Below are positions 35,526 through 57,950 of a stretch of DNA of 64,000 nt, piece by piece. The notes below the pieces were generated by a model, which did no database searches, was not told where the DNA came from, and saw only the letters and a program-made list of their open reading frames with translations. Where the stretch lies: the NCBI GenBank assembly GCA_017979445.1, contig CM030715.1:14533660-14597659 (forward strand), read 5' to 3'. Position numbers and translations under genes: made by a program. The stretch is from Akebia trifoliata. Its lineage: Eukaryota; Streptophyta; Magnoliopsida; Ranunculales; Lardizabalaceae. Numbering within the stretch: the stretch's first letter is position 1; each line of letters begins with the position of its first letter.

Positions 35526-35630
35526 ACTTTTTCGTCAAAACTCATAATAAACAACTTTACCTGATCTAATAAAACATCATGCATCCTCATTTTTGTAAAT
35601 AAGATAGTAACACTTGGTTGTCTGTACCCA

Positions 35631-35633
35631 CAG
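35631..35633 (+). promoter_or_regulatory. possible splice acceptor just before gag
   Basis: GTTGTCTGTACCCACAG lies directly ahead of the first gag codons. Together with the LTR donor CTACAAG|GTGGGT near 32397 it could remove the whole leader. No transcript evidence is available. Confidence 0.35.
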
Positions 35634-37681: not shown

Positions 37682-37689
37682 AACCCGAT

Positions 37690-39462
37690 CCACCCCCCAT
37701 AATCATACGCTCACCTAAACCGTTCCCCTATAGCTCCAAACAGGCAGTTCCCTGGAGCTATGAGACCACTATCACCACCACCACGGGGGTCGAAACAATG
37801 AAAAAAACAGTAGTGGCAGATATCGACCATATGACAAGGGCAGGAAAATGCCAAAATTTGCCAGAAAATGGGGAAAACATCGGGACAGAAACCGAAGAGA
37901 CAAGGGAAGAGGGGACAGATGAAGAAAAAAGAAAAGCAAAGGGGAAGGGTAAGCTATATAAAGAGGAGAAGACAGAAGAAAAGGTGAAGGTCACCGACAA
38001 GGAAGCTGCAGACTTCGTTAAGCTCATCCTCAAGAGTGAGCATAATGCAGTGGACAGGTTGAACAAACAGCCAGCTCAGATTAGTATCCTGGGACTAATG
38101 CAAAAATCAGAAGAACATCAGGAGGCACTGCTGAGAGTTCTGAGAAAATCACATGTACCTTCAACCACGACACCATCACAGTTGGAACAAACAGTCGGCC
38201 AGATCATGGCCCCCAATCCTATTATTTTCACAGAGAATGAATTCACGCCTGAGGGGACGGGGCATGTCGAACCACTGAACGTCATGGTCATATGCAAGGG
38301 CATGATGGTCGCCAGAGTATTGATTGATAATGGCTCAGCGCTTAACGTCTGTCCACTTGAAACATTCCGGAAACTCAACGCTGACTGGTCATATGTGAAA
38401 CCCAATAATAAGGTTGTCCGAGGCTTCGACAGTTCGAGAAGGGATTCCCTGGGAGAGGTGGATTTACCTATCACAATAGGTCCTTGCACCTTTGAAATAA
38501 CATTTGAAGTCATGGAAATACCAACGACATTCAACCTGTTACTGGGCAGACCTTGGATCCACATTGCCGGAGCTGTACCTTCCTCGTTGCACCAAAGAGT
38601 CAAATTTATCATGGGGCAGAGGATGATATCGGTATTGGCGGAGAACCTTATTCCAGCTGGGAGAGCTCCAGATGTGCCATTCATTGATATAGAGATGACG
38701 AAGGATAAAACACTCTACCATTCGTACCAATTCGCGGCTGTCAATCACATCGAGAAGGGGAAGGAAAAGGTAAGGGCAAAGCTATCAAGAGCAAACCTTA
38801 TGGTTGGTCGGGTCATGAAAAGATCGGGATACCGACCCAAGCAAGGGTTGGGGCCGGGAGGAAGAGGAAGAGCTACACCGGTCGAAGCCAGGAAGCATAT
38901 TCCTTACTTTGGGCTAGGGTTTAGACCCACAAAGAGGGATATTGCAGAAATGAATGACAAGAAAAAAGAACTTCGGCTAGCCAGAAAGCAAAATCGTGAA
39001 CCGAACATCTGGAATCTGGGCCGAGTCCCTCACATTAGTGTCAGCTTCCCAAAGTCCCATATCAGACCTGACGACTTATCAGAACTGCCATCCTTAAAGA
39101 GGCCAAAAATGGTAAACATCGCACCACTGCACGTTCAAGAAGATTCAATCGTAGAGTCCCAATCATCCTTTGAAAAGGCATTGATGTTTTATTCAATGGG
39201 GATTCCGATGAAAGTCCATCAGAGACTGCTCCAAAACCCACTAAAGCGAAGGCCATTACCAACCAAGAGAACAACTCACCATATCCATCAGGTATCGACT
39301 GGGCATCAGTCATCATCCCACCAAGTTTGGGAGGGACTATGCCCCAATCTGACAACAATCAATCGGAGATCGGTCATCTCCGAACCACCAACCAAATCAT
39401 TCAACGAATCACTTGCTCATCTCATCCGCCCCTTCAGAGAAGGGGAGACATTGCACAACTGA
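37690..39462 (+). CDS. E1 protease domain with G-patch-like tail
   Basis: A single open frame runs to the TGA at 39460. After a Pro-rich and acidic/Lys linker comes a retropepsin: VARVLIDNGSALNVCPL at about 38310-38355 (catalytic Asp in DNGS, where D-T/S-G is usual), then the flap and FNLLLGRPWIH at 38530-38565. Downstream, RVMKRSGYRPKQGLGPGGRG at 38812-38870 resembles a G-patch, with IPYFGLGF after it. The start is not defined: the upstream part of this frame overlaps the gag frame to 37492 and is probably joined to gag in the ancestral element by the frame lost near 37680. Confidence 0.82.
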   Translation, partial: PPPIIIRSPKPFPYSSKQAVPWSYETTITTTTGVETMKKTVVADIDHMTRAGKCQNLPENGENIGTETEETREEGTDEEKRKAKGKGKLYKEEKTEEKVKVTDKEAADFVKLILKSEHNAVDRLNKQPAQISILGLMQKSEEHQEALLRVLRKSHVPSTTTPSQLEQTVGQIMAPNPIIFTENEFTPEGTGHVEPLNVMVICKGMMVARVLIDNGSALNVCPLETFRKLNADWSYVKPNNKVVRGFDSSRRDSLGEVDLPITIGPCTFEITFEVMEIPTTFNLLLGRPWIHIAGAVPSSLHQRVKFIMGQRMISVLAENLIPAGRAPDVPFIDIEMTKDKTLYHSYQFAAVNHIEKGKEKVRAKLSRANLMVGRVMKRSGYRPKQGLGPGGRGRATPVEARKHIPYFGLGFRPTKRDIAEMNDKKKELRLARKQNREPNIWNLGRVPHISVSFPKSHIRPDDLSELPSLKRPKMVNIAPLHVQEDSIVESQSSFEKALMFYSMGIPMKVHQRLLQNPLKRRPLPTKRTTHHIHQVSTGHQSSSHQVWEGLCPNLTTINRRSVISEPPTKSFNESLAHLIRPFREGETLHN

Positions 39463-39816
39463 GAAGAATTCCCATTAACTCTTGAGGCTGTCGAGGCCTA
39501 AAAAAAAATGCCATTAGGCGACATCAATTTGCCCGAGGATCATAATGAGCCCTCGTCCTCGGGTAAAAACTATTTTGGGGGCTCCCTATCTTTATTAACA
39601 AGTTTGCATGATTGTTCTTCTTATTTCAGGTATCCAGAAAATCACAAAAAAATAAATACTTCTCAAAAGGCAAAAAAATCAAAATTTTTTCAAAAATCAA
39701 AAAAATAAAAAAGCTTTCAAAATTACAAAAAAATAGATATTTTTCAAAAACCAAAAAAAGAGTTTTCAAGGGATCTGTCTCCATCAAATGAGTACTCAGA
39801 TAAAACAGAATTTGAA
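39463..39816 (+). other. protease-RT linker with stops; possible intron
   Basis: The frame of protease and RT is the same, but two or three stops (TGA 39460, TAA near 39499 and 39706) lie between them. TTCTTCTTATTTCAG at about 39615-39629 looks like a splice acceptor. Ogre elements are known to carry an intron between protease and RT, so this may be the same arrangement; decay is the alternative. Confidence 0.45.
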
Positions 39817-41766
39817 ATGGACGAGTATGATTTCGATCTTGAACTCGACTTCGACCTCATGGGGATAGAAGAAGAGTCTGAGGACGAAATGGAATACCCA
39901 CCAAAAGAAATCAAAGACTTGGTAGAACGCCACGAAAGAGGTGTTCAGCCAAACATCGAGGATACAGACTCAATTAATCTCGGTACCGAAGAGGACCCAC
40001 GAATTGTCAAGATTGGAGCTTTACTAACGTCACAACAGAAAAAAGAAATGGTCGAGTTCCTACGAAATTATCAGGACGTCTTCGCATGGTCATACAGAGA
40101 TATGCCGGGGTTAGATACAGATCTCGTTGTACACAAGCTACCCATTGCTTCCGGAAGTAAGTCGATCAAGCAAAAACTGAGAAGGCTGAAGCCTGAATGG
40201 ACCCTCAAGGTCAAGGATGAGGTCATGAAGCAATTCGAAGCAGGGTTTCTTGCAGTCTCCACATACCCGGAATGGCTAGCTAACATTGTACCAGTACCCA
40301 AGAAGGACGGAAAAGTACGCATGTGTGTCGACTATCGAGACTTGAACAAGGCCAGTCCTAAGGATGATTTTTCACTTCCACACATCGACACTCTAGTCGA
40401 TAGTACAGCAGGGCACGGCATGTTCTCATTCATGGATGGCTTCTCAGGCTATAACCAGATAAAAATGGCAGAAGAAGACCAAGAAAAGACAGCGTTCATC
40501 ACACCATGGGGTACTTTTCACTACAAAGTCATGCCGTTCGGGTTAAAGAACGCGGGGGCAACTTACCAACGGGCGATGACTGCATTATTCCATGACATGA
40601 TCCATAAAGAAATGGAGGTCTACGTAGATGACATGATCGCTAAGTCTGGCATTGAGGAAAATCATCTGATCAATTTAAAGAAGTTGTTCGACAGGCTGAG
40701 GAAGTATAGCTTAAGGCTAAATCCGGCAAAATGCGTGTTCGGGGCAACATCGGGCAAGCTACTGGGATTCGTTGTCAGCAGAAGGGGCATTGAAATAGAT
40801 TCGGCAAAGACTAAATATATCCTGGAAATGAAGGCACCCGGTACAGAAAAAGACATTCGGGGCTTTCTGGGAAGAATACAATACATTAGTCGTTTCATTG
40901 CTCAGCTCACGCCTATCTGTGAGCCAGTCTTCAAGCTATTAAGGAAAGATACGCCAAAGAAGTGGAACAAAGACTGTCAAGAAGCATTCGACAAAATCAA
41001 GCAATATCTGCTCAATCCACCAGTCTTAGTCCCCCCTACGCCAGGACGACCTCTGCTGATGTACATCTCAGTGCAAGAAACATCTATGGGGTGTGTGCTA
41101 GGGCAACATGATGAATCAGGACGGAAGGAACATGCCATCTACTATCTCAGCAAGAAATTCACTGATTACGAAGCAAAATACTCGACACTCGAAAAGACTT
41201 GCTGTGCATTGGTTTGGGCATCTCAACGACTACGTCATTTTTTGCTCAGCTACTCGACTATGCTTATCGCCAGGATGGACCCCCTAAAGTACCTATTCGA
41301 AAAACCAGCACTAACAGGCCGCACAACGAAATGGCAGTTATTGTTATCAGAATTCGACATCACCTATGTCACCCAAAAAGCCATCAAAGGGCAAGCCATC
41401 GCTGACCACCTCGCCGAGCACCCGTTGCCTGATTATGAGCCGTTAAAGACAAACTTCCCGGATGAAGCCATACTATTTGCCGAGATTGAAAACGATGATG
41501 ACGAAGAACCTGGTTGGAAAATGTACTTCGACGGAGCAGCTAATCAGAAAGGAAATGGAATAGGGGCAGTCTTGATTAAACCAGACGGGTCCCATGTACC
41601 GATCGCAATCAGATTGAAATTTCAATGCTCTAACAACGAAGCCGAATACGAAGCATGCATAGCAGGGTTAAAAGCAGCATTAGATCTCGAGGTAGACGAG
41701 ATTGATGTTTTCGGAGATTCAAGCCTGGTGGTCTATCAGACGACTGGAGAATGGAAAACTCGATAA
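39817..41766 (+). CDS. E1 reverse transcriptase, relic RNase H and second RNase H
   Basis: A 649-codon open frame. After an acidic leader come VFAWSYRDMPGLD, then the RT: WLANIVPVPKKDGKVRMCVDYRDLNKA (40265-40350), MPFGLKNAGATYQR (40533), YVDDM (40621-40635, catalytic Asp pair intact), KCVFG and LLGFVVS. The first RNase H (41050-41400) starts LLMYISVQETSMGCVL, so the usual catalytic Asp is Ser, as in Tat elements that acquired a second RNase H. That second domain follows at 41516-41766: MYFDGAANQKGNG (Asp), NNEAEYEACIAGL (Glu), VFGDSSLV (Asp). A TAA at 41764 cuts it before its last catalytic residue. It synthesises cDNA in the particle. Confidence 0.95.
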   Translation: MDEYDFDLELDFDLMGIEEESEDEMEYPPKEIKDLVERHERGVQPNIEDTDSINLGTEEDPRIVKIGALLTSQQKKEMVEFLRNYQDVFAWSYRDMPGLDTDLVVHKLPIASGSKSIKQKLRRLKPEWTLKVKDEVMKQFEAGFLAVSTYPEWLANIVPVPKKDGKVRMCVDYRDLNKASPKDDFSLPHIDTLVDSTAGHGMFSFMDGFSGYNQIKMAEEDQEKTAFITPWGTFHYKVMPFGLKNAGATYQRAMTALFHDMIHKEMEVYVDDMIAKSGIEENHLINLKKLFDRLRKYSLRLNPAKCVFGATSGKLLGFVVSRRGIEIDSAKTKYILEMKAPGTEKDIRGFLGRIQYISRFIAQLTPICEPVFKLLRKDTPKKWNKDCQEAFDKIKQYLLNPPVLVPPTPGRPLLMYISVQETSMGCVLGQHDESGRKEHAIYYLSKKFTDYEAKYSTLEKTCCALVWASQRLRHFLLSYSTMLIARMDPLKYLFEKPALTGRTTKWQLLLSEFDITYVTQKAIKGQAIADHLAEHPLPDYEPLKTNFPDEAILFAEIENDDDEEPGWKMYFDGAANQKGNGIGAVLIKPDGSHVPIAIRLKFQCSNNEAEYEACIAGLKAALDLEVDEIDVFGDSSLVVYQTTGEWKTR

Positions 41767-42381
41767 CAGAGACTGGTCCCTTACCACGAGTATCTAGAGG
41801 AACTAAGCTCACACTTCGACAGAATCTCATTCACCTACATGCCTAGAGCTAAGAACCAGTTCGCCGATGCACTAGCTACCCTTGCTTCCATGATTAGTAT
41901 TTCAGAAGATCTGGTCATCGACCCGATTGAGATTGGAATTCAGGACGAGCCAGCCTATTGTCTACTCGTCGAAGTAGAAGAACCTGAAGAAAAGTCTTGG
42001 TACTCAGACCTCAAAGCATATCTCGAAGATCGAACCCTTCCCTCAGATGCAACGCCTAACGATCGCAGAACCATTCAGAGATTGGCAGGGCAATTTTTTA
42101 TCAGCAATGGCATCCTGTACAAAAAGTCACACCACGAGGTCTTACTCCGATGCGTTGCAGAAGCCGAAGCAAAGCGATTAATCGAGACTGTACATGGTGG
42201 AGTCTGTGGACCTCACATGAATGGCCATATGCTAGCAAAGAAGATCATGCGGATGGGGTACTATTGGTCGATAATGGAAAGTGACTGTTATCAGCATGTT
42301 CGCAAATGCCATCTATGCCAAATCTACGCCAACAAAATCAATGCTCCGCCTTCAGAGCTGCATAACATGACTACGCCTTAG
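41767..42381 (+). pseudogene. E1 pol continued: end of second RNase H and integrase zinc domain
   Basis: Same frame as RT after one stop codon. RLVPYHEYLEEL and KNQFADALATLASM (final RNase H Asp) are followed by a linker and the HHCC integrase domain: VHGGVCGPHMNGH...CYQHVRKCHLCQIY at 42190-42325. The segment closes at TAG 42379, where the family has Trp in WPFSLWGMD. Confidence 0.93.
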
Positions 42382-43245
42382 CCTTTCTCCCTTTGGGGAA
42401 TGGATGTCATCGGGCCAATCTCACCAAAAGCTGCAAATGGACATCGCTTCATCCTAGTGACTATCGATTACTTCACCAAATGGGTAGAAGCTGCTTCATA
42501 CGCCAACGTCACCAAAAGCAATGTCCTGAAGTTTGTCAAGAACAACATTGTCTGCAGATATGGGCTTCCCAGCGGGTTAGTGACTGATAATGCTAAGAAC
42601 TTCAAGAACAGGGATATGGTCAAGATGTGCGAAGATTTCCAGATCACTCATCACAACTCTGTACCATACAGACCTAAAATGAACGGAGCAGTCGAGGCAG
42701 CCAACAAGAATATTAAGAAAATTATCGAGAAGATGGCAATTACATACAAAGACTGGCACGACATGTTGCCTTTTGCACTCCATGCCTATCGAACTTCGTT
42801 CAGAACCTCGATTGGGGCAACTCCATATTCATTGGTCTACAGAATGGAAGCAGTCTTACCCGTAGAAGTTAAGATTCCCTCCCTCCGAATTTTAAAAGAA
42901 GCAGAATTAGATGAAACCGAATGGATTCAAGCTCGGTTCGACCAGTTAAATCTAATCGAAGAAAAGCGGCTAGCAGCCATCTGCCATGGGCAAATTTATC
43001 AGAGACGAATAGCTCGTGCCTACAACAAGAAAATCAAGCCTAGGGATTTCTCGCCAGGAGACCTTGTATTGAAGAAGATTCTGCCGATCCAAGAGGACGC
43101 CAGAGGAAAATTCAGACCGAACTATGAGGGACCATTCATCGTGAAGAAGGTGATGACGGGAGGAGCTCTGATCCTTACGGAGATGGACGGACAAGTCTTC
43201 CCGCAACCGATCAATGCTGACACTGTCAAAAAATACTACGCCTAA
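42382..43245 (+). pseudogene. E1 integrase catalytic and C-terminal domains
   Basis: The frame continues after the TAG at 42379. D,D35E motif: Asp in LWGMDVIGPI (42400), Asp in LVTDNAKNF (42583), Glu in NGAVEAANKNIKKII (42688). HAYRTSFRTSIGATPYSLVYRMEAVLPVE and RRIARAYNKKIKPRDFSPGDLVLKK (GPY/F-like barrel, 43000-43075) follow, ending DTVKKYYA and TAA at 43243. Except for the two stops the integrase looks intact. Confidence 0.93.
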
Positions 43246-44713
43246 AAAATTGACCCTGAGATGACGAAAGGCCATCTTTGCTATTCTAAACCAACAAATC
43301 TAACCTTAGTCAACCCTTTTTGAGCCATCACGTTCATTTTCTAACTTAAGACTGGGGTAAGTCAACAACTACAAGGAAAAAAACAAAGAAAAAAAAAATC
43401 AAAAAAAAAAACAAAAACAAAAACTCCTGGCCCGCATGAGGATAAACTGTGAACGGCTAAAAATATACAAAAAAATCAAAAAAGTCAAAAAACTCGGACA
43501 CTTGATCTGAGCTCGACCCAAATCTCCAGCCTAAACAAGTTCGAGAGACGCTGGGAGGAGACGCAGATCACTTTTTCGAAACAAAAATAGACAAACCCCA
43601 TGTCTAAAACACTCTAAATCCATCCAGACCTTAATCTTTTTAACCTTCCACTACCATTAGCCTAAGCCAACGTTTCGTCCCAACAAAAGTCCTTTTTGAT
43701 CAGGGAATGTTCTAGGGCAACCCAACGACAATGGCAGCATCAATGATCTTGCGACTTGGTCCGGACCTCCAAAGTCTTATTAGTCGTTGGAAGACTCGAG
43801 AGGGGAATCCAGGTCGGATATTCGAAAAAAATAGTACCTAAAGTGTAGAGTAGCCGATCTTGCAGCTCAACTTGAGTTGCCAAACCACGAATAGTCGTCA
43901 GCAAACTCGAGAGGGGAATCCAGATCTACTACTCGAGAAAGAGTGCCACTACAAGAGTAGAATCGTCGATCTCGCAGCTCAACTTGAGTCACCAAGCCAC
44001 AGAGACACAGAGACTTCGAGCAGAATTGTAATGTAAAAATCTAAAGATACAAGCATAGTCTGAAAGGGCATAGTGAAAACCCGAAAGGGCGCTATGAGTA
44101 AAAGAATCAGACTATGGCAAGATCAAAGCCACCGGCACGATGAAAATCCCAAAAAGGACGTCGATGCGCAAAAATGTGGAAACCGGGTCTGGTGAAAATC
44201 GTAACTGGCACCGGGGGCAATAAGGGTAAACAAAAATAAAAAAAAACAAAAAATAAAAAAAAACAAAAACAAAAACTCCTGGCCCGCAAGAGTATAAACT
44301 GTGAACGGCAAAATCCATCCAAAACTCCGAGACCCCAAACGGATAACGACCTTCCGATACCAGGGCACTGGGAATGATTCTAAAGGAACCAAAAGAATAA
44401 TTGACATCTGCATCACCCGTGCTGGGCAAAAACACCAAAATCGTCACAACCAAAGATTTTACAAACTCTGAATTTATCGTACTCATTTGATAAAAACATT
44501 TCACAAAATTATATTTCAAAACTACTATTTTTGCCAATGACGACAAATCTAGGATGTATTCAACAAAACCTCGAGTTTTCAAGAACAATAGATATACCTG
44601 AGGCCAAGTAAGTAGAAAAACCTATTTTCTTTGCATTAATCCTTCAACATTTTGCATTATTCGTATAAGGAAGAGAAAAACAAAAAAAAAAAAAGCGAAT
44701 ACAACGCAGTCAA
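43246..44713 (+). other. E1 spacer between integrase and antisense gene A, with direct repeats
   Basis: A-rich runs, an approximately 70-bp direct repeat with ACTCCTGGCCCGCA (43424 and 44275), and a two-copy approximately 107-bp tandem with CTCGAGAGGGGAATCCAG (43796 and 43906). Minus-strand frames at 44107-44588 have no domain. Confidence 0.7.
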
Positions 44714-45574
44714 TCAAATGTCATGGTGAGAAATGAAAAAGGAGTCAAGGCGTTCCTCCAAAACACGGATCCGGGCAGCCTGACTCACCATCACTTTCTC
44801 GGCATCTGAAGCATCACGACTCACCAAGTATGCCGCAAAGTCCTCAAAATAAGGACACTGGGCAAGCCGATCCCTCAACTCATCAACCTCAGCTCGAAGC
44901 CTAACCACTTCATTACCATCACTACTTCCGGACTGGGCAAGGGCAGATATCAGTCGAGCAATCTTTTTCTGCATCTTCTTTTCGGATTTGAGCCAAATAG
45001 CCTGAATTCGACGATGATCAGTTTGAGACTCCTCAACTCGATCTCGGTAATCAAAGAAAGATGAAGCACCGGGGTGTGTCCGAGGAACTATGGATACCGA
45101 TGGTCTCCCAGAAACGAGCTCTCGAATCCAATGCAAGTATGCCGGGAACTGGTGTGCTGCAAAGATGGGTCGACTCAGAACCTCAACCCGACCCCATTCT
45201 TTCATGAGTCGACTCAAAAGTGCAGTCGACAACGGACCGACCAACTCACTAAAATTCTCCGGGATGAGCACGCCCTGGTCATAGCCAAATTGACGAAGAA
45301 CCCGAAGTGGTACGTAATGAGTTGCCTCGTGAAGACCAATCAAAACAAGGAAACGAGCCCCATCAAAAGCAATCACGGGGGACCCTCGAGGTTGGAAGGC
45401 ACCAACCCATCTCACTTCCTCATTATCAAGGTTGCCGACAAAAGAATACCATTCTTCTTTGCCACCTGAGATGAAGGGAGCAACTCGCTTCGACATCATG
45501 AGTACGAGATCAGCGTTAACGCAAAATGGGCGGTTAACCACTTCAGTTGAAGCCAGATGATCCATGAACCAGAG
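44714..45574 (-). CDS. antisense gene A, exon 2 (PMD-like protein, C-terminal part)
   Basis: A 287-codon open exon begins after acceptor TTATTGTAG at 45575 with LWFMDHLAST and ends at a TGA at 44714-44716. It continues gene A: LVLMMSKRVAPFISGGKEEW, HEATHYVPLRVLRQFGYDQG, then a Lys-rich segment and a heptad coiled coil (VVRLRAEVDELRDRLAQC and VMVSQAARIRVLEERLDSF). The architecture of a plant-mobile-domain (PMD, aminotransferase-like) fold followed by a coiled coil is common in PMD proteins captured by retrotransposons. The cellular role is unknown. It lies in antisense to E1. Confidence 0.8.
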   Translation of the reverse strand, partial: LWFMDHLASTEVVNRPFCVNADLVLMMSKRVAPFISGGKEEWYSFVGNLDNEEVRWVGAFQPRGSPVIAFDGARFLVLIGLHEATHYVPLRVLRQFGYDQGVLIPENFSELVGPLSTALLSRLMKEWGRVEVLSRPIFAAHQFPAYLHWIRELVSGRPSVSIVPRTHPGASSFFDYRDRVEESQTDHRRIQAIWLKSEKKMQKKIARLISALAQSGSSDGNEVVRLRAEVDELRDRLAQCPYFEDFAAYLVSRDASDAEKVMVSQAARIRVLEERLDSFFISHHDI

Positions 45575-45656
45575 CTACAATAACATGAGCATTCTAAACT
45601 TGGGAAACTAATAAATTCAAATTCAAAATTTTAATCCAAACTAAAATGGAATTTAC
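45575..45656 (-). other. intron of antisense gene A (82 bp)
   Basis: CTCCTGCAG|GTAAAT and TTATTGTAG|CTCTGG, phase 0, T-rich as plant introns are. On the E1 sense RNA these signals are reversed and would not be used, so retrotransposition does not remove the intron. Confidence 0.8.
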
Positions 45657-46312
45657 CTGCAGGAGGGGAGCACATCCTCGAAAAGTCCGATCACGGCCTG
45701 AAGAACAAGCCGTGAGGGATTGGAACATTCCGCTCAAAAGCATCGGGGCCAACCGGCGTCCCTCCCGGACTTGTTGCACAACGTGAATAAGAGAAAGATC
45801 TATGATGTCTCCGCCACCCGGGAACAAGAGTTGACTCACCACCATCAAAGTGAGAGCATTAAAATGAATCAAAGGCTTCGAGGGATCCGTGAGGCGTTCA
45901 ATCAAAAAAGACTTGGACATTGTCTTCAAAACCGATCCGCCATCCGGAATCTTCAAAAATTTGCGACTTATGCCCAAAAAATCGGAAGCCTCACTTCGGA
46001 ACCCATCACGAAAGGCGAAATCACAACGGGGCCCGATATCTCAAGACCCAACAATACTTCAAATTCCTTGATAGTGGGAGTCATTTCATGTACCCCAAAC
46101 TGGAAAAGATTAAGCTCGGGAATCCAATACCCCAACATAGCCTCAATCAAACCCCATTGCAACGGAACCATAGGCAAAGAGAGGGCGAAGCCCAACTTGT
46201 TCAAGCACCATTGAGCTCTATCATCATTATCCATGCTATCTATCCAATTACTCAAGAAAGAATCAACAATGCCATACCTTTTCAAGTTGGGAAGAGTGGA
46301 TGGCACCTCCAT
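45657..46312 (-). pseudogene. antisense gene A, exon 1 (PMD-like) with one frameshift
   Basis: It starts at ATG 46312 after a pyrimidine-rich 5' UTR. It encodes NLKRYGIVDSFLSNWIDSM, a short amphipathic region with RAQWCLNKLGFALSLPMVPLQW, and FGVHEMTPTIKEFEVLLGLEISGPVVISP. The E-MTPTI-x-EFEVLLGL phrase is the hallmark of PMD/DUF-type proteins. The frame shifts by one base near 45975 (VRLP then DFLGISRKFLKIP). The exon length, 656, is two more than a multiple of three, which agrees with one small indel. Palindrome array 2 begins 120 bp upstream. Confidence 0.8.
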
Positions 46313-46431
46313 AGAGCTTGAGAAGAAGCTTTGAGGGAAGAAGAAGAGTAAAAATCGGCCAAAAGTGAAAAAGGGAAGTAAAGGTGAAAGTGAGATGTTA
46401 GGGCAAGATGAAGGCTAAAGTAAATCATTCT
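46313..46431 (-). promoter_or_regulatory. putative 5' UTR and core promoter of antisense gene A
   Basis: On the minus strand the stretch is pyrimidine-rich (CTTCTTCTTCCCTC...), as plant 5' UTRs often are, and lies between array 2 and the gene A ATG. No TATA box is clear. Confidence 0.45.
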
Positions 46432-46606
46432 GGTCCGTGCCCAAAACACGGATGCAATCAAAGATAACTCATCTGTGCCAACAACACGGATGAAACAAGA
46501 TATGACTGATCCGTTCCTATGGCACGGATAAGACATAAAAAACCCTATCCGTGCTATTGGGACGGATAAACATTGAAAAAGCCCATCCGTGCTGAGAACA
46601 CGGACC
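46432..46606. repeat. palindrome array 2: five dyads at exactly 38-bp period
   Basis: Centres near 46443, 46481, 46519, 46557 and 46595. The caps match array 1: GGTCCGTG at the left, CACGGACCAG at the right. Individual dyads read for example CATCCGTG-CTGAGAA-CACGG. The DNA between dyads differs from arrays 1 and 3. Confidence 0.93.
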
Positions 46607-47106
46607 AGAACATTCTTCAGCCTTGGGGCCCAAGACATTGGAAATGCTGATAATTCCGGATTACATAATGTTTATCTCAGGGCTTAATCACATAAAAATG
46701 ATAGAAATTCCTACATGCTCGATAAATGTGTTCAAAACTCGCAAAATTTCTTGAGATATATATCGGGCACATAAGAACTCGTCGAAATCATATTGGGCCA
46801 GATCAGACATCGAAGGATCACGACTCACACCACTCAAGAGCACACTCGAAGGGTCCTTGGGACCCTCGTCGCACCCTTCACCCGCCCATAGACTCACTGA
46901 CACTCAAGAGGACTCGAAAACCCCAATGAACAATATCTCACCCGAGAAGTTGGAATGAATTGCACATATAGTCATGACAATGCAACAAATACAATGAACA
47001 ATGAGCACAAATGCATATGTATACCAAAGTTATAATGTCTGCATACAATATCTGAAAGTCTAATATAAGAAACATCTAATGTTTTGCAAGGTACATAAAT
47101 ACAAAA
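46607..47106. other. spacer between antisense genes B and A
   Basis: No coding region. It holds the 3' flank of gene B and the distal promoter of gene A. The minus frame 46282-46638 reads through array 2 and is not a gene. Confidence 0.55.
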
Positions 47107-47334
47107 TCAGACAGAGGGAGGAGCCTCATCCCGAGCACTCTGAGTCTGTGGGATAGTTCCAGAAGAAGATCCAGCCACTACACCCGACCCAGACACCCCG
47201 GAAGAAGGAAGGCCGTGCATCCGCAACCGTCCCTCCGAATTCGTGAAGAATAGCTCCGCGTCCAGGACAACATCTTGCTCCGTAGTACCCGCGAGATCAA
47301 CGCCGAGGACAGCAGGTCCAGTGGAGGGGGAGGC
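47107..47334 (-). CDS. antisense gene B, coding exon 6 (last)
   Basis: Acceptor TTATTTTCAG|GCCTCC at 47335; 76 codons end at TGA 47107. The product is Ser/Gly/Thr-rich with no known domain (ASPSTGPAVLGVDLAG...SSSGTIPQTQSARDEAPP). It is in phase 0 with exon 5. The minus reading before 47334 is intron. Confidence 0.75.
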   Translation of the reverse strand, partial: ASPSTGPAVLGVDLAGTTEQDVVLDAELFFTNSEGRLRMHGLPSSGVSGSGVVAGSSSGTIPQTQSARDEAPPSV

Positions 47335-47422
47335 CTGAAAATAAGAGAAACAAAGCATATCAAGCAACAATGATATACACGGCATGGGTAGAGAAATGAA
47401 CGGCTAAAATGTAAATACTTAC

Positions 47423-47482
47423 CCTAGGAGGTGTCGGAGGCCGCGCACAGGTGCTCGCTCCATCTCGGCGTCGATAGTAGTC
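47423..47482 (-). CDS. antisense gene B, coding exon 5
   Basis: A 60-bp exon (20 codons) between TTTTCAG|GACTAC and CCTAGG|GTAAGT. It encodes DYYRRRDGASTCARPPTPPR. The intron to exon 6 is 88 bp and phase 0. Confidence 0.7.
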
Positions 47483-47567
47483 CTGAAAAGATCGTATGTT
47501 GGAACCAGTCAAAATTTAATACCATGAGCTATGATCTACAAAACAGAAAATGAACGAAATGACGTAC

Positions 47568-47788
47568 CATCTCAGCTTGAAAACGAGACTCGCGCATGGC
47601 TATCTCCAACTCCAGCTCCTGGATCCGGGCTGCCTGAGTCTCGAGACGAGCCTCCTGCTCCTCCAACCGAGCAGCCTGCTCCTCCACCTCCGCCCTAGAG
47701 GCCCTCTACCTATTCTTCATCTCCACGGCCCTCGCCGCCTGAGCCTCAATCACGTCATATCCCTCCCGAGGCGACGAAGATCATCAAC
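47568..47788 (-). pseudogene. antisense gene B, coding exon 4 (coiled coil)
   Basis: Acceptor TTGTTTTTAG|GTTGAT, donor GAGATG|GTACGT. The exon encodes VDDLRRL and then, after a one-base shift, EGYDVIEAQAARAVEMKNR and a strong heptad coiled coil rich in EEQAARLEEQEARLE. TAG at 47706-47708 stands where a Trp codon would fit. Length 221 is one base short of a multiple of three, as the frameshift requires. Confidence 0.75.
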
Positions 47789-47862
47789 CTAAAAACAAGA
47801 AAATCAACCAAGTAAGAATGATAAAACGCAGAAAATTCTAAAGGCAATGACAGAGTACGTAC

Positions 47863-48252
47863 CGTCACGACATGCTCCTGAAGCAATACCCCTCCAATCT
47901 CGGTGATCCCGGCCCGGGCAGTGACAGCAGGCATAATGTACCCAATCGAGGCCTCTCGGAACCACGCCTGGAAGTCACCCCCTCTCACCAGCCCAGCAGC
48001 ATCTACGCCCCTCGCCTGGGCAAGATACTCATCCATCGTCATCGCACCCGAGATAGGCTCAGGTGGAGCGACAGGGATGCGAAGACTCCCGTCATGCTGG
48101 AAGAACAAGCGCTCTCCTAGATAAAATGTATATCTCTGCTCGTCGATGAAGTAGGGATAGCGCTGTCGTCTGGTGTTACGCCTATAGGCGTTCCTCACCT
48201 CTTGCCTCCCGCTAACGGTACGGGGAAGGTCTCGTAAAGTAACGGAGAATAT
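47863..48252 (-). CDS. antisense gene B, coding exon 3
   Basis: Exactly 130 codons between CTTGTAG|ATATTC and GTGACG|GTACGT, uninterrupted. It encodes IFSVTLRDLPRTVSGRQEVR, YFIDEQRYTFYLGERLFFQHDGS, MTMDEYLAQARGVDAAGLVRG and FREASIGYIMPAVTARAG. It follows the PMD domain. Introns on both sides are 74 and 85 bp, phase 0. Confidence 0.8.
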
Positions 48253-48337
48253 CTACAAGAGAGATAGTCAGGTGGTCAGATAACGAGTATAGATAACTTC
48301 AAAGCCAAATAAAAAGGGAAAAGGGTAGATCACTCAC

Positions 48338-48496
48338 ATCTCGAAGCCAGCACCGATCAATATGGGCCCGGGCACTCCTAGGGCTGCTCCTAATGGCCCT
48401 GGCGTCTCTCGTAGCCCAAAAGGCGCCCAATGGATAGCCCTCATCAGGGTGACGACGAGTGGGCAGGTAAAATGGAAAGAACACATGAACAAAAAT
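48338..48496 (-). CDS. antisense gene B, coding exon 2 (end of PMD)
   Basis: Exactly 53 codons between CCCTCTAG|ATTTTT and CGAGAT|GTGAGT. It encodes IFVHVFFPFYLPTRRHPDEGYPLGAFW and RCWLRD, matching the aromatic end of the plant mobile domain. Phase 0 on both sides. Confidence 0.8.
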
Positions 48497-48579
48497 CTAG
48501 AGGGAAAAGCATGAAGTGTCAGACAGTGAATGAGATGTCAATAAGAAGATTGGGAAGAATAAGACTGAGACTTATTTAC

Positions 48580-48931
48580 CTCAACAAAATGCCAGAAGAA
48601 TCAAGTGGAGATGCCAGCTGCACGAGGTGCAGTGATGCCCGCCACTACTCGATCAAGCCCAGCCAATATAGTACCATATATAAGGCTCCCCCAATCAAAA
48701 TCGCCGATGTGGTCAATGTCACGCATGACAGAGAGGAATGTGATGGAAACTGAAGAATCATCCTCTAAGAAGAAACAGCTGTCGATGAGGAGAAGGAAGC
48801 AAATACGAAAAATAATGTCAAAGTCCCTATCCCCTAACCGGGCTGCTCTCTCTCGATAAGTGTGAGGAGCTCCATCCTCTTCCTCAATCAGCAACAACCC
48901 CATCAACACCTCCGTGCTAATCCTACCCTGC
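48580..48931 (-). pseudogene. antisense gene B, coding exon 1, downstream half
   Basis: It continues exon 1 after the E2 insertion (the left TSD copy CCTGC at 48927-48931). It encodes RISTEVLMGLLLIEEEDGAP, RLGDRDFDIIFRICFLL, FDWGSLIYGTILAGLDRVV; the WGxxxY...LA.LD pattern is the PMD core. TGA at 48601-48603 interrupts the phrase T-stop-FFWHFVE where Trp is expected. Donor GTTGAG|GTAAAT. With one TSD copy, both halves together give 1125 bp, exactly 375 codons. Confidence 0.85.
48927..48931. repeat. TSD CCTGC of element E2 (left copy)
   Basis: Repeated at 59682-59686. It lies inside coding exon 1 of antisense gene B. Confidence 0.95.
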
Positions 48932-50644
48932 TGTAGACACCCCATTTTTGCACTCGCCTGATTAATCAACTCGTCAATTCGATTGCAATGATTCCCAATG
49001 ATGGATGTGTATTCCATTGCTATATTTTGTTACTAAATGTGTTTCAGAAATCCGGATGAGGTATCTCGAATTGACAAAACCTTAGAAACCACGCTACGCT
49101 AGGAAAATACGACCCCAGAAACATATAAATCATCATCTTGCAGACCAAAAAGAAACTTCACGATAAAAATCACTAAAAAAATTACCAAATTACCAAAATA
49201 CCCCTAACCTCAAAACAACCCTAGAGCCTACGTTACGCTTAAGAAAACTCTCTCGAACACATAAAATAACAAATCGGAACCAAATAAATCATTTCACAAA
49301 TTTTAACAGAATTTGACAAAATTACGAAAATGCCCCTCATAAAGTTCACAATCATTTCACATAAAATTTTCATAAATGACACAAACCAACATTCTCATTG
49401 AATTCCTTATGAAAAACCGATTCTAAAACATCCTAGAACATTAAAAAACGACTTGAAACGTGAAAAGTCCTCTCCGGGGGCAAAACGGTAATTTCATATT
49501 TTCATAATTAAAAAATTTGAAATTAATAAATAAAATATTAAATAATTAAAGTGTGAAACATTGATGAAATTAATTTAAAATTTTGAACCTAAAAAATCGA
49601 TCAATCGGACTATCGGGGTAAAATTGTTGAGGGTTCGTGGGATATTTCTTTAAGGACCCCTCTATTTGGGGGTCCAAAGAATTAAAGAAATAATGGAAGG
49701 GGGTTCTCCAAAATTTAAAGTCAATCAACAAGACTGTAGTCAAAGTATTAAAGTCAATCAAGTGAGACTAAAGTCAAAATTAAAGTCAATTAAGCAAGAC
49801 TGAAGTCAAAATATTAAAAGTCAATCAATTAAGACTAAAGTCAAAACATTAAAAGTCAGTCAAATAAGACCAAAAGTCATAATAGAATTCTAATTAAATA
49901 ATAACTCTATCTAATAGAGTTCTAACTTAAAAACAATTCTACCTAAAACAATTCTAATTAAAACACAATTCTACCTAAACCATTTTAACTAAAAACAACT
50001 ATAATTAAACACTAACTCTATCCAAATCAACCTTAAAAAAATTCTATAAATAGAGGTGCTCACACCCTATTTTCGTATCAAATCATAAACCCTAAGAGAA
50101 GTAGGTCTAGAAGCTCCCCTAGCCCCCCATAAACCCTAGTTTTGGAGCCCCAACTCCTTACCTAACATCCCTCCTTCATTTTAGTCTAAAAAACACCTAA
50201 AATCCCTCCCAAAAACACCCCCAAATCCACAACAAACTTGAAGAGTTCAGATCCAAAAACAAGGAGATACCTTGATCTAGGAGATCCGAAGTCAAATCCG
50301 GAGACAGAACGAAGCAAGGGAGTACAGTACAAGGAGCTCTTTTTGTCAGATCTGAGGGAACAAAATCCTTGCTATCGGAAAGGTATGTAATTTTTTATTT
50401 TTATCTAGGTTTTTAGCAATGTGATATATTTGGGAAGTTAGTAGAGACCGGCTTTGCCGGGCGGGTTGTGTGCCTAACACCTTCCAACCCCGTAACGTGA
50501 TCCCCGGACTCTTTTTCTCTTCGTAGATTAGTTTGCCTTTTTTAGAGTCAATTTGATTCCTAGACCTTAACAACTAGGTGGCAACTCCCAAACTTCAAGG
50601 GTCAAAAGCGGATCCGCGCATCCCGCGGATCGAGGGTGCTTTCA
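48932..50644 (+). repeat. E2 5' LTR, 1713 bp
   Basis: TGTAGACACC...GGTGCTTTCA. TATA box CTATAAATA at 50044-50052. A run of AAAGTCAATCAA-type short repeats lies at 49690-49880. A strong donor-like GAAAG|GTATGT is at about 50383, downstream of the likely transcription start. Confidence 0.95.
50044..50052 (+). promoter_or_regulatory. E2 5' LTR TATA box
   Basis: CTATAAATA followed by GAGGTGCTCACACC. It is also kept in the right LTR (59078-59086). Confidence 0.75.
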
Positions 50645-50645
50645 G

Positions 50646-50663
50646 TGGCGACTCCACTGGGGA
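50646..50663 (+). other. E2 primer-binding site
   Basis: TGGCGACTCCACTGGGGA, one base after the 5' LTR. Tat/Ogre-type PBS. Confidence 0.92.
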
Positions 50664-50892
50664 CTATTGAGGATCAAACTTGAAAATCCTAAGTATGGGA
50701 GCATTGCCAAGATGACCTAGATTTTTTTATTATTTAGTTGGATTTATTTATTTATTTTTTCTGTTTATTTATTTTTTGTCTTGATTGTAGATGATTTTGG
50801 GTATTGCATTTTTTTTTCCAATTAAGGATCACTTTTTGATGACCCCTAAATAATGAAAGATTCAAATTGACCTATGAAAATGATGGAATGAT

Positions 50893-51640
50893 GAAGGTTG
50901 GACAGAAATATTAAAACGTTTTTAGAGAATATTCTAGTGAGAATTAAGTCTGGGAGCCTGTTAATAAAAATAGATCTCGTCGAGTAGATTAATTTAGAAT
51001 CTGAGTTCACTCAATTTCGTTATCGGAAGCCTTAGATATCATCGATGCAAGTTCAATCTGTAAATCTAGAATTATATCTGAATGAAAGTTGGGATAGCAA
51101 TGTTAAAACTTTTTTAGAGAATATTCTAGTGAGAATTAAGTCTGGGAGCCTGTTAATAAAACATAGATCTCGTAGATTAATTTAGAATCTGAGTTCACTC
51201 AATTTCGTTATCGGAAGCCTTAGATATCATCGATACAAGTTCAATCTGTAAATCTGGAATTATTTCTAAATGAAAGTTGGGACAGCAATGTTAAAACTTT
51301 TTTAGAGAATATTTTATTGAGAATTAAGTCTAGGAGTCTATTAATAAAACATAGATCTCGTCGAGTAGATTAATTTAGAATCTGAGTTCACTCAATTCGT
51401 TATCGGAACCCTTAGATATCATCGATGCAAGTTCAATCTGTAAATCTGGAATTATTTCTGAATGAAAGTTGGGACAGCAACGTTAAAACGTTTTTACAGA
51501 ACATTCTGGTGAGAATAAGTCTCTGGACACCTTTAATAAAATGTAGATCTCATTGAGTAGATTAATTTAGAACTTGAGTTCACTCGATTTCGTTATCAGG
51601 AGCCTTAGATATCATCGATGCAAGTTCAGATTGTATTTTC
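50893..51640 (+). repeat. four tandem copies of an approximately 188-bp leader repeat
   Basis: Each unit contains GAATGAAAGTTGGGAC, AGAATATTCTAGTGAGAATT, GTTCACTCAATTTCGTTATC and TTAGATATCATCGATGCAAG. Units start near 50893, 51083, 51273 and 51461; the fourth is the most diverged. Confidence 0.9.
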
Positions 51641-52049
51641 CTAATTCACAGAAAATCTGAATTTATCTAATGTTGGCACAATTAATGTTCTTAAGAGTGA
51701 GCTCATCTCAACCATTGTCATTCTATCATCAATGTAACACCTATTGGAATCTCGATTTATTTTGGATCACCCAAAAGTGATAATTGATTGGACCTTAAAA
51801 ATTATAAAAATTATAAAAATTATGCTTATTGCAATGTTTTTGATCATTATCATATGCCATATTTATTGATTAATTTACCATGATCTTGCTTGAAATACAT
51901 GATTGATGTTGATCGTAATGTTAATGTGCTTATGTGATGGGAATAATGTGATCTTAATTGAATATTCATATGATTTGAATGATTTTGGTTTTTTTGATTA
52001 AATGTATGATTGGTTTGATGGATCCATGTGCCCATTTGTTTGAAAAAGG

Positions 52050-52400
52050 TCCCGGGCACACCCCACCCTGTTTTGCACACACCACATGCACGTTTAATGT
52101 TTTACTCACTTACACGTCCCATTTAGCCAACGTGACACTAGTGCGTAGCCCGGTCTCTTCGGAGATGCGACGTCATTCATGAAACTCACAACTCCAGTCA
52201 CGTACCTTAGGGTATATCAAACTGGGGGCATCAATACCATCTGATCAGGTGATTCTGAGAAGTATGTTGATGCACATATTGTAAGCCACACAGTCACATG
52301 TCCCGATTGCCAACGTAGTACTAGTACGTGGTCGGTCCCTCGTGGGATGCCAAACCATTTATGAAAGCTACAACTCTTGACTCGTACCCGTAGGTATAAA
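52050..52400 (+). repeat. two-copy tandem of an approximately 190-bp leader segment
   Basis: CACGTCCCATTTAGCCAACG...CGTAGCCCGGTC...GTATAT is followed by a diverged copy, CATGTCCCGATTGCCAACG...CGTGGTCGGTC...GTATAAA. Confidence 0.7.
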
Positions 52401-52427
52401 AGATAGTCTACGTATATCAATTGCACT

Positions 52428-52612
52428 TCTTGGTCAAAATCGGTGCCTAAGCAAGATCTTGCCCCGCTGTACCCTACTGTACGAGGGGGATAGACTACGT
52501 CTATTTTAGACGAGAGGTATTTAAGTGGGCCCTTGCTCAGCATTGTGCGCCACCTCTCAACTGGAGATCAAACTGACTGTTTTTGACTTCAGAGAAGTGA
52601 ATTGAGGTTTTA
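52428..52612 (+). other. leader block shared with element E1
   Basis: TCAAAATCGGTGCCTAAGC, GGATAGACTACGTCTATT, CATTGTGCGCCACCTCTC and CTTCAGAGAAGTGAATTG correspond in order to 34687-34860 of E1. See the finding. Confidence 0.75.
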
Positions 52613-52789
52613 GATTATCACCTATACGGTATATCAAACCAAGTCACCACGTATCGAAAGGTATATAGGTGTGCTTGGGCAAGGGTGGCCAGATAAAAAT
52701 GCATTGCACGTAGTAAGCTTAGAGTCTAGGAAACCTTTCCAGTAAGTCACGACTCGAACTTATCGTGGTGTTCCCGGGTTTGTTTATTG

Positions 52790-52920
52790 AATGAATGCAT
52801 GTGATGATGAATGTATGTAAGTGATGTGAATGATGAGATCAGAACGCATTTGAATGATGAGATCAGAATGCATGTGAATGATGAGATGAATGTATATGAA
52901 TGATGAGATCAGGAATGTGC
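52790..52920. repeat. GAATGATGAGAT minisatellite
   Basis: Short degenerate repeats of GTGAATGATGAGATCAGAAT-type units, about five copies. Confidence 0.75.
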
Positions 52921-53079
52921 GGGTTTGTCCTCAGGATAAATTTTTTGTTGTTTAACCTGATTTGAAATTACAGTATCATTGGGTACACCAACCCAATAAA
53001 AAATCTATTTTTAAACTTGACCCAGTCCATCTCGATCCAACGATCATTATGGGCCGGGCCATTTAAATCGAAATACAAA

Positions 53080-53500
53080 TCAAATTTTCAAAGAGCAAAA
53101 ATGGTTTAGGAAGGGAAAGTATTTTCCAGAAAAAGTGTTTTCCAAAAGAAGTGTGTTTTTTTTTTTTTAAATGTTTTCCAAAAAAAGTGTTATTCTCTAG
53201 AAAATAATGTTTTATAAGAAAAAGTGTTTTCCAAAAAATGTTTTCCATAAGAACAAGATTTTCCAAGAGAAAATGCTTTCCAAATAAAGAACTATTTTTT
53301 AGAGAAAAAATATTTTTCAGAAGAAAATATTTTCCGAAAGAAAAGAAAATGAAGGAAAAATGATTTACAAAAGATCTATTTTTGCATGAAAAAATTTTTG
53401 AAATGTGTTTTTCACCAAAAATCTATTTTTTTTGCATGGACTTTGTAAAATTATCAAAATATGTTTTTCTAAAAAGAAAATGACTTGCAAAAAAAAAAAA
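53080..53500. repeat. degenerate TTTTCCAAAAGAAAGTG-rich tract
   Basis: An A/T-rich series of loosely repeated GTGTTTTCCAAAAAA phrases. No coding meaning; the minus frame at 53063-53266 is a product of the repeat. Confidence 0.65.
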
Positions 53501-54439
53501 ATCAGATTTGTGTAAGTTTTATTAAATGAAAACATTATTTCCAATAATTTTCAAGAGTGCAATAAAATTATTTCCTTCTGAATAATCATTGAGCGGATGA
53601 ATTGTTTAATGGATTGGTGCACAGAATTCAATAAAATCTCAGGGTTCATTTAAAATGTTATCAAGGGGATGACACTGAAATTGGTTAAATTCACCTTCAA
53701 AGAGGTTTAAGGGTTATCATTGTACCTAAGCTCAATCATCCATCGTCTAGCTAGGGTTACTAGTCCAGTCAGTTGGAACGAACGTCAACGCCAAATCAAT
53801 CCTTTAGAATTTCTCAACATTGCCCAGTTATTCCCTGAAGATCATAGTACTTTAGTCTTGTCGGTTATAAGCAATGTCTCAATCCTCATTCCTAATCAAG
53901 CCCGTGGTGGGTAGTTGTATTGCGTTTCATGAGTTATTTGAGTTAGCTCGAGTCCAATTTTTCAATGTCATATTTTCTTTAGATCGAGTCTACTCTTTTT
54001 CTATTGAGTCGAGTTAGTTTTCGAGTCATAGAGGTTGCCTGTCGCCCCTTTTGAATTTTATGGCTAAAGGAAATATTTGAATACCTCGAGCGCATTAACG
54101 AATAACTACTAATCTGGCTTCAAGGATAGATTTCTTTCCTGAGCAAGAAGATAAGAGTCAGGTTCAACGTTAATCGAGAAAACAAAGGTTATTGACCTCA
54201 AAACAGAAAATAATTTCTAAAGAGATTCAAGTAGAAACCCTCCTATCCCTAGAGGAACACGAGGGGATAATGAATTTACTCAGAAATTTCAAAAGACTTG
54301 TTCGTGTGATCCGATGAGGATGTGTTAGGTGCAAGCTTGCGTGTTGTTCAACACGGAATAGATACTCGCTTGATGAGATGAAAATATCGATAGAGATGTT
54401 ATAAAATGTATCAACACTATCCTTACTACATCTTGAGTT
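53501..54439 (+). other. E2 internal region, unassigned
   Basis: No clear gag, protease, RT or RNase H. A short open frame at 53720-53914 is not recognisable. Integrase starts near 54440. Confidence 0.5.
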
Positions 54440-57607: not shown

Positions 57608-57950
57608 CATTTAATTTCTCCCAACTTTTGCTCAGATTTGTCTCAAATATCATTCAAATTTTCTCGAGTTTTATTTTACTCAGAGTTTACTCAATTTCAC
57701 ACAGTGCACACACTTGCACTTTTTAGTCAAGGAGAATTCTCTAAAATTCAAGGATCTGACACTGTCAGTGAGAGCTCTCGCTCAAGGACCTGACAACCTT
57801 TTAGTTCGGGGAGAGCTTTACCCTCAAGGATCCGAACACCCCGACGAATTGCTAAATCAGGCTGCAAAATGAACTATCACTAGCTTTGGCATTCAAATAT
57901 CGCATTATCTACCAAAATAGATTTGCTATCTAGTTTGCTTCAACTCTCTG

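What the first reader, a model, noticed from the sequence alone, without database searches (positions are those of the whole stretch)
46432..46606. Five-dyad arrays (CCGTG...CACGG, 38-bp period) occur three times in E1
At 33622, 46432 and 62302 there are five imperfect palindromes each, with near-identical 38-bp spacing and the same end caps (GGTCCGTG left, CACGGAY...CAG right). The sequence between palindromes has diverged completely, but the arms are largely kept, which is what selection on the dyad would produce. Two fixed numbers (five copies, 38 bp) suggest phased binding of a dimeric protein or RNA folding. I know no named element with this layout.
Basis: seen in the sequence. Interest (0 to 1): 0.87.

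Follow-up and report, generated by a model that had tools for sequence, protein, structure and literature searches.

The report
Phased palindrome arrays in plant retrotransposon
A large plant jumping gene carries three sets of five short palindromes spaced 38 bases apart, near its ends and in front of one of its genes, and selection has kept the palindromes and their spacing while the DNA between them changed freely, which points to an unidentified protein that grips the element there.

Summary
E1 is a Tat/Ogre-type Ty3/gypsy retrotransposon (30662-63646) with three arrays of five dyads: A1 in the 5' leader, A2 117 bp upstream of the ATG of an antisense plant-mobile-domain (PMD) gene, A3 about 400 bp before the 3' LTR. 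The host genome has 3021 exact CCGTG-N7-CACGG dyads against 72 for a control pattern and 801 exact dyad pairs against 0; the 50 listed pairs lie 37-40 bp apart, 40 at exactly 38. Across aligned copies arms barely change on internal branches (0.11 per site against 0.59 in spacers) but decay like spacers on terminal branches: selection while the element replicates. Spacer length is protected too. Loops read YYNNNRR without covariation of the outer pairs, fitting two DNA half-sites better than an RNA hairpin. Five is usual in this family, not universal. Best reading: operator-like arrays for a dimeric DNA-binding protein assembling in 38-bp steps. The binder is unknown; the element's PMD proteins are candidates. 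Closest known: Sirevirus palindromic boxes and VANC target arrays.

The parts
30662..63646 (+). E1, Ty3/gypsy LTR retrotransposon of the Tat/Ogre kind, with a nested element inside
   Evidence: LTRs starting TGTAGACACC and ending GTAGCTACA, TSD CAACG on both sides, PBS-like stretch after 32877; gag, RT, RNase H, second RNase H and integrase domains
30662..32877 (+). 5' LTR (carries about 1466 bp absent from the 3' LTR)
   Evidence: blastn of the two ends
62887..63646 (+). 3' LTR
33620..33798 (.). Array A1: five dyads at 38-bp period in the 5' leader, about 745 bp after the 5' LTR; caps CTGGT and ACCAG
   Evidence: kept in copies
46430..46608 (.). Array A2: five dyads at 38-bp period, 117 bp upstream of the ATG of antisense gene aPMD-1
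   Evidence: five dyads in 25 of 25 aligned copies, E1 included
62300..62480 (.). Array A3: five dyads at 38/38/39/39 bp, about 400 bp before the 3' LTR
   Evidence: five dyads in 11 of 11 aligned copies, E1 included
35913..43245 (+). gag-pro and RT-RH-aRH-INT reading frames (broken into several ORFs)
   Evidence: ORF list and Pfam
44717..46312 (-). aPMD-1, antisense plant-mobile-domain gene, broken in E1; ATG at 46312-46310
   Evidence: weak PMD/DUF7745 hits below cut-off in E1, hits above cut-off in copies L017 and L023 (PF10536, 2.3e-14 and 5.7e-14); ATG read
59956..60435 (-). Part of aPMD-2, a second antisense PMD gene, split by the nested element
   Evidence: tblastn to copies; PMD above cut-off in copies L017 3.3e-11 and L023 1.8e-13
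48931..59681 (+). Nested LTR element inserted in the aPMD-2 region (not part of the arrays)
   Evidence: LTR pair 48931-50644 / 57965-59681, TSD CCTGC
34894..35511 (+). Neighbouring direct array of small dyads CRRC-TCCGT-GYYG, sharing the octamer TCCGTGYY with the 38-bp arrays

Best explanation
The arrays are operator-like cis elements of an Ogre-type retrotransposon lineage. Each dyad is a double-stranded DNA site of two half-sites reading RTCCGTGYY inwards from each side, bound by a dimer (inferred). Successive dimers sit 38 bp apart and probably touch, so spacer length matters and spacer sequence does not; the caps CTGGT/ACCAG mark the ends of a run (inferred). One array lies in the sense leader, one upstream of an antisense PMD gene, and one between a second antisense PMD gene and the 3' LTR, so the bound protein would control sense and antisense transcription, or keep these regions free of silencing. 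Shown: positions, enrichment, spacing, selection on arms and spacer length, half-site symmetry. Inferred: protein binding, cooperativity, regulatory effect. Unknown: the protein; the element's own PMD proteins and a host transcription factor are both open.
For: Arms against spacers plus loop centres, three alignments together (A1 32 copies, A2 25, A3 11, E1 counted in each): 17 changes on 150 arm sites against 149 on 251 spacer sites on internal branches, but 117 against 172 on terminal branches; Fisher p 1.4e-12, and 1.1e-6 without CpG transitions. With a tree built only from A1 flanks: arms 1 internal and 62 terminal, spacers plus loop centres 62 and 100, p 6e-10. Indel start columns 1 of 170 in the A1 array against 41 of 354 in the flanks (p 1.1e-6). 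Spacing 38 bp in 40 of 50 listed pairs, none outside 37-40 although 23-53 was allowed. 101 dyads: loop position 1 pyrimidine in 100, position 2 in 96, position 6 purine in 100, position 7 in 99; no covariation for pairs 1-7 (p 0.52) and 2-6 (p 0.32); the arm letters of left and right half-sites have similar frequencies. A2 is 117 bp upstream of the aPMD-1 ATG, and L017 and L023 show the same layout. Arrays occur in the 5' leader of families whose gag pieces are about 55-80% identical to E1's (L016, L019).
Against: No binding, expression or methylation data. [quoted passage not shown] RNA folds are more stable than 60 Markov controls each (z -5.6, -4.6, -2.4) and pair the two caps in all three arrays. 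Loop positions 3 and 5 do covary (0 of 5000 shuffles), though copies are related. Left and right loop pyrimidines differ somewhat in C/T use. A3 lies about 2 kb from the aPMD-2 frame, not at its start. Branch counts use parsimony and treat changes as independent; the A2 and A3 trees come from the arrays themselves. In A2 the spacer is only about twice as fast as the arms on internal branches (0.29 against 0.16 per site; A2 alone p 0.008), and the 26 flank sites there are slower still (0.12). The YY/RR positions change about as often as spacers, within class.
Confidence: 0.6

Rival explanations
1. RNA structure: in the genomic RNA each array folds into five short hairpins, or one long nested hairpin closed by the caps, acting in packaging, export, splicing or as a small-RNA source.
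For: Folds are more stable than Markov controls (z -5.6, -4.6, -2.4), and the predicted folds of all three arrays pair the two caps. All three arrays would be in a full-length sense RNA (inference).
Against: Loop flanks keep pyrimidine/purine classes without covarying; one-sided arm changes such as CCGTT..CACGG and CCGTG..AACGG are shared by many A2 copies; arm sequence itself, not just complementarity, is kept across families. Pairing of loop flanks on three typed majority arrays: 0.33 Watson-Crick locally, 0.47 in the nested fold, 0.40 for all combinations, too few to decide.
Confidence: 0.17
2. The binder is a host transcription factor recruited by the element (for example a stress or developmental activator), with no element-encoded partner. 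This is a sub-case of the best explanation, opposed to the PMD reading.
For: The same half-site is kept across families of one genome, as expected for a stable host protein; the authors on Sirevirus boxes recovered mainly stress-related host factor sites when comparing them with a motif database (PMC2829016, passages).
Against: No known plant site with 38-bp phased palindromes was recognised in the listings of the searches made; a single site would often be enough for a host factor (general knowledge).
Confidence: 0.33
3. Ordinary tandem repeats: a palindromic unit was duplicated in tandem and has no function; similarity reflects recent amplification or homogenisation.
For: Tandem arrays in the UTRs of Tat-lineage elements are common (PMC11963269, sections; PMC6317226, passages), and two other arrays of E1 (34074-34517, 34894-35511) have longer counterparts in copies.
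Against: Spacers between arrays are at chance identity while arms are kept; arms are slow only on internal branches, which neither homogenisation nor low mutation explains; spacing is held.
Confidence: 0.05
4. A separate small transposable element, defined by the caps as terminal inverted repeats, inserted three times in E1.
For: Many runs have inverted caps CTGGT/ACCAG; 80 capped runs of five-dyad length genome-wide against 0 in the control.
Confidence: 0.03

Closest known systems
Sirevirus repeated motif (RM) boxes, Ty1/copia (PMC2829016, passages read)
   Same: Many copies of a palindromic, CpG-containing box in non-coding parts of a plant LTR retrotransposon, near the promoter and also upstream of an extra gene (env).
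   Different: Ty1/copia, not Ty3/gypsy; boxes lie in the LTRs upstream of the TATA box, E1's LTRs hold no exact dyad; core CGG-CCG with few bases between, here CCG-N11-CGG; the passages read describe no fixed 38-bp step, no caps and no antisense PMD gene.
VANC target motif arrays of VANDAL transposons (PMC5735166, passages read)
   Same: Short motifs clustered in tandem in non-coding regions of a transposable element that also encodes additional proteins.
   Different: VANC21 binding was shown by ChIP-seq and EMSA; here nothing is shown. The VANC motifs given are not palindromes and targets vary between related TEs; these arm cores are the same across the families seen in this genome. VANDALs are DNA transposons (recalled).
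Tandem repeats and antisense ORFs between pol and the 3' LTR of Retand and Ogre elements (PMC11963269: abstract, section 11 part 1, section 12; PMC6317226: passages)
   Same: Same broad lineage; extra ORFs, PMD in 57% of Ogre elements; tandem arrays are frequent there; a DNA-binding regulatory role was proposed for the Retand TRP28 protein.
   Different: The parts read describe family-specific tandem repeats of unknown function, not a phased palindrome with kept arms and free spacers; TRP28 is not PMD.
BII-type tandem boxes in LTR promoters of Tnt1-like elements (recalled; from no call)
   Same: Short repeated, partly palindromic activator boxes in a plant retrotransposon.
   Different: In the LTR U3, stress-factor sites, different sequence and spacing (recalled).

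Membership tests
Tat/Ogre clade of Ty3/gypsy | Additional RNase H between RH and integrase | tested here: met
   RT_RNaseH 445-549, RVT_3 607-683 continuing into the next ORF, then Integrase_H2C2 and rve; definition from PMC6317226 (passages)
Tat/Ogre clade of Ty3/gypsy | gag-pro and RT-INT in two ORFs with a short region between | tested here: met
   Frame with G-patch ends at 39462, RT frame opens at 39709; 274 bp on average for Ogre in PMC6317226; the frames are broken further by stops, and whether the gap is an intron was not tested
Tat/Ogre clade of Ty3/gypsy | Extra ORF with plant mobile domain | tested here: met
   PF10536 above cut-off in copies L017 and L023, antisense to pol; below cut-off in E1 itself
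Tat/Ogre clade of Ty3/gypsy | Place in an RT phylogeny with named Ogre elements | not tested
   No tree with named references was built; the 120 listed relatives are 57-70% identical, those with names being mostly uncharacterised plant proteins
Sirevirus RM boxes | Host element is a Ty1/copia Sirevirus | tested here: not met
   Integrase follows RNase H, the Ty3/gypsy order
Sirevirus RM boxes | Palindrome with CGG-CCG core | tested here: not met
   Core is CCG-N11-CGG
Sirevirus RM boxes | Clusters in the LTR upstream of the promoter | tested here: not met
   No exact dyad in either LTR of E1; arrays are in the leader, before the antisense gene and before the 3' LTR
VANC-type anti-silencing target arrays | Motifs clustered in non-coding regions of the element | tested here: met
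VANC-type anti-silencing target arrays | An element-encoded protein binds the motif and removes methylation | not testable with these tools
   Needs binding and methylation assays
VANC-type anti-silencing target arrays | Target motif differs between related families | tested here: not met
   CCGTG/CACGG core shared by E1, L005-type, L016 and L019 families of this genome; the outer letters differ
Plain tandem repeat or satellite | Whole unit similar between copies | tested here: not met
   Arms 0.88-0.94 identical between arrays, spacers at chance
Rfam RNA families | Match at gathering score | tested here: not met
   0 matches in 30600-63700

The most novel reading that the evidence does not exclude
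An Ogre-lineage retrotransposon carries its own regulon: its antisense plant-mobile-domain proteins bind 38-bp phased palindrome arrays as a cooperative array with defined ends, at the sense leader, upstream of their own gene and near the 3' LTR, and so set the balance of sense and antisense transcription or shield these regions from silencing. To my knowledge this would be the first DNA target of a transposon PMD protein.
Probability: 0.22. Interest if true: 0.82.

Novelty: new variant of a known kind. Interest (0 to 1): 0.63.

Why it matters
Non-coding regions of the giant Tat/Ogre retrotransposons are easily taken for fast-evolving filler, and I know of no established role for their antisense PMD genes. 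A module kept by selection in both sequence and spacing, repeated at three places of one element, gives a concrete handle: a probe to fish out the protein and a motif to look for in other plants. If the binder is the PMD protein, it would also bear on how the host PMD proteins MAIN and MAIL1 act in transposon silencing. The internal-versus-terminal-branch contrast is a reusable test for cis elements inside transposon families.

Tried and rejected
Chance: rejected. Separate small transposon with terminal inverted repeats: no target-site duplication seen at the caps and corresponding positions in copies. Passive tandem repeat: rejected by the arm/spacer contrast. Rfam: no match. Search for the array in viral contigs: 0; RT-based search there: 0 relatives. 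In the prokaryote collection (257 Gb by the tool's description) the dyad pair with gap 20-22 occurs in 13 stretches, so the motif is not a general sequence habit; those 13 were not examined. Protein searches with an aPMD-1 piece and with an aPMD-2 frame found nothing at E <= 0.001, so no structure was predicted; no solved structure matches the aPMD-1 piece at E <= 10. Three single dyads (L010, L012, L020) were set aside: they lie in another repeat with different flanks. Four of 36 A1 copies (L009, L013, L014 with six dyads, L022 with four) were left out of the A1 alignment, which favours few indels. A1 copies: 30 of the 40 main places were fetched, one being E1 itself. Counts of capped runs with three, four or six dyads were asked for and never answered, so the 80 capped five-dyad-length runs against 0 in the control (41 of the 50 listed are exactly 179 bp) have no comparison. 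NAC/VOZ, CAMTA and BZR1 half-sites were considered from memory only; the recalled VOZ site GCGT-N7-ACGC has a spacing 2 bp shorter.

Full report
What is there. The window comes from a plant genome held as G000 (652,546,730 bases; window at C12:14533660-14597659; that it is a plant is inferred from the retrotransposon relatives). E1 spans 30662-63646: LTRs begin TGTAGACACC and end GTAGCTACA, with CAACG duplicated at both outer ends and a primer-binding-like stretch after 32877. Pfam finds gag (below cut-off), G-patch, reverse transcriptase, RNase H, a second RNase H and integrase in Tat/Ogre order (clade features from passages of PMC6317226). Antisense to pol lie frames that match the plant mobile domain, below cut-off in E1 and above it in copies L017 and L023: aPMD-1 and, split in E1 by a nested LTR element (48931-59681, TSD CCTGC), aPMD-2.

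The arrays. A1 (33620-33798), A2 (46430-46608) and A3 (62300-62480) each hold five dyads, CCGTG-N7-CACGG with AT usually outside, capped CTGGT and ACCAG (ATCAG in A3). A1 lies about 745 bp after the 5' LTR. A2 lies 117 bp upstream of the ATG of aPMD-1 (46312-46310 on the minus strand), with a pyrimidine-rich leader between; L017 and L023 show the same layout. A3 lies about 400 bp before the 3' LTR and about 2 kb upstream of the aPMD-2 frame in L023 and L017. Neither LTR of E1 holds an exact dyad.

More than chance. The window has 8 exact dyads; forty Markov sequences gave none. In the whole genome the exact dyad occurs 3021 times against 72 for the pattern read backwards. Two exact dyads with centre spacing left free from 23 to 53 bp occur 801 times against 0; of the 50 places listed, 40 have 38 bp, 8 have 39, one 37 and one 40. 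Capped runs of five-dyad length occur 80 times against 0; other lengths could not be counted. In the prokaryote collection the pair pattern with gap 20-22 was found in 13 stretches.

Where the copies are. Twenty regions of 8-10 kb were taken around the first places listed on contig 1. Seventeen hold arrays (in L021 only weakly) and three hold a lone dyad in another repeat. All 17 have E1-related protein or DNA in the same region (part of its DNA table was cut): arrays lie before gag, or at the A2 and A3 places. Families whose gag pieces are about 55-80% identical (L016, L019) still have an array in the leader, with three dyads. The L005 group has several runs of two or three with cap-like ends. 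L021, with antisense protein pieces 36-69% identical, has dyads 76 bp apart, two steps of 38, with a decayed middle.

Selection. Thirty-two A1 copies with five dyads, E1 included, were aligned (of 36 examined): diversity 0.076 in arm cores, 0.109 at YY/RR, 0.184 in spacers, 0.183 in loop centres, 0.143 and 0.194 in the flanks, although arms contain CpG. Parsimony on a tree splits changes into internal branches, when elements were still copying, and terminal branches, mostly after insertion. A1: arms 4 internal and 59 terminal; spacers alone 44 and 74. A2, 25 copies: arms 8 and 40; spacers plus loop centres 27 and 41, p 0.008. A3, 11 copies: 5 and 18; 70 and 43, p 0.0005. Together arms run at 0.113 per site on internal branches against 0.594 for spacers plus loop centres, but 0.780 against 0.685 on terminal branches, p 1.4e-12; without CpG transitions p 1.1e-6. 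To avoid circularity, a tree from A1 flanks alone gives arms 1 and 62, spacers plus loop centres 62 and 100, p 6e-10. A mutation cold spot or gene conversion would not spare only internal branches. Spacer length is also kept: one indel start column in 170 in the A1 array against 22 in 182 and 19 in 172 in the flanks (p 1.1e-6); choosing five-dyad copies favours this. The effect is weakest in A2, whose spacers (0.29 per site internal) and short flanks (0.12, 26 sites) are also slow. The p-values treat changes as independent.

DNA or RNA. In 101 dyads from these 20 regions and the window, the seven loop bases read YYNNNRR (100, 96, 100 and 99 of 101 at positions 1, 2, 6, 7), yet positions 1-7 and 2-6 show no covariation (p 0.52, 0.32); positions 3-5 do. 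Arm letters have similar frequencies on both sides, the loop pyrimidines less so. In A2, one-sided arm changes are shared by many copies. This is what two-fold symmetric reading of double-stranded DNA predicts: a half-site RTCCGTGYY, each half choosing its pyrimidines on its own. RNA folding of the arrays is strong and pairs the caps in all three, so RNA is not excluded.

Mechanism. I take the arrays to be operator-like: a dimer per dyad, neighbouring dimers 38 bp apart (about 3.6 helical turns), probably touching, with capped ends. Their places suggest control of the sense leader and of antisense transcription. No binding was tested. The element's PMD proteins are candidates because one array lies right before a PMD gene and Retand antisense proteins have been proposed as regulators (PMC11963269: abstract, section 11 part 1, section 12). 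Against this, direct DNA contact by PMD proteins is unproven, and the DOWN motif linked to MAIN/MAIL1 is different (PMC7156037 and PMC9899485, passages). A host factor is at least as likely.

Known or new. Sirevirus RM boxes (PMC2829016, passages) are the nearest description and VANC target arrays (PMC5735166, passages) the nearest tested mechanism; membership in either fails on tested features. Searches for a described Ogre palindrome array or a similar phased element listed none that I recognised from titles and abstract starts; the library holds open-licence papers only. I rate it a new variant of a known kind.

Limits. One genome, unnamed; no other plant genome could be searched. A2 and A3 samples are small and chosen by similarity. 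Trees for A2 and A3 come from the arrays themselves.

Noticed in passing
window 34894-35511 and copies in L005-L054: Direct array of small dyads CRRC-TCCGT-GYYG with compensating stem types (CGAC/GTCG, CAGC/GCTG, CAAC/GTTG) around TCCGT; 389 of 559 clustered TCCGT units in L005-L054 and the window (overlapping copies and some units of other arrays included) have all four flanking pairs, GU allowed. It contains the octamer TCCGTGYY, the half-site of the 38-bp arrays. This one looks more like an RNA hairpin array than the 38-bp arrays do.
   Followed up: partly
window 34074-34517: 28-bp tandem array whose unit holds the dyad CTGGGTCACGACCCAG; some copies have a longer counterpart.
   Followed up: no
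window 48931-59681: Nested LTR element with 1.7-kb LTRs (97% identical) and internal 192-bp and 52/105-bp tandem repeats; only one frame of 120 aa or more lies wholly between its LTRs, and it was not scanned for domains. It split aPMD-2.
   Followed up: partly
window 30842-32307: About 1466 bp in the 5' LTR of E1 absent from the 3' LTR; copies such as L013, L015 and L017 match much of this stretch, so the 3' LTR probably lost it.
   Followed up: partly
L010 4065, L012 3954, L020 4082: Lone CCGTG-N7-CACGG dyads inside another repeat, with flanks such as GAGGATAC before or GCATCCTC after.
   Followed up: no
window 9660-10600, 18670-18970, 22700-23520: A family of sequences repeated many times in direct and inverted orientation, around AT-rich repeats.
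   Followed up: no
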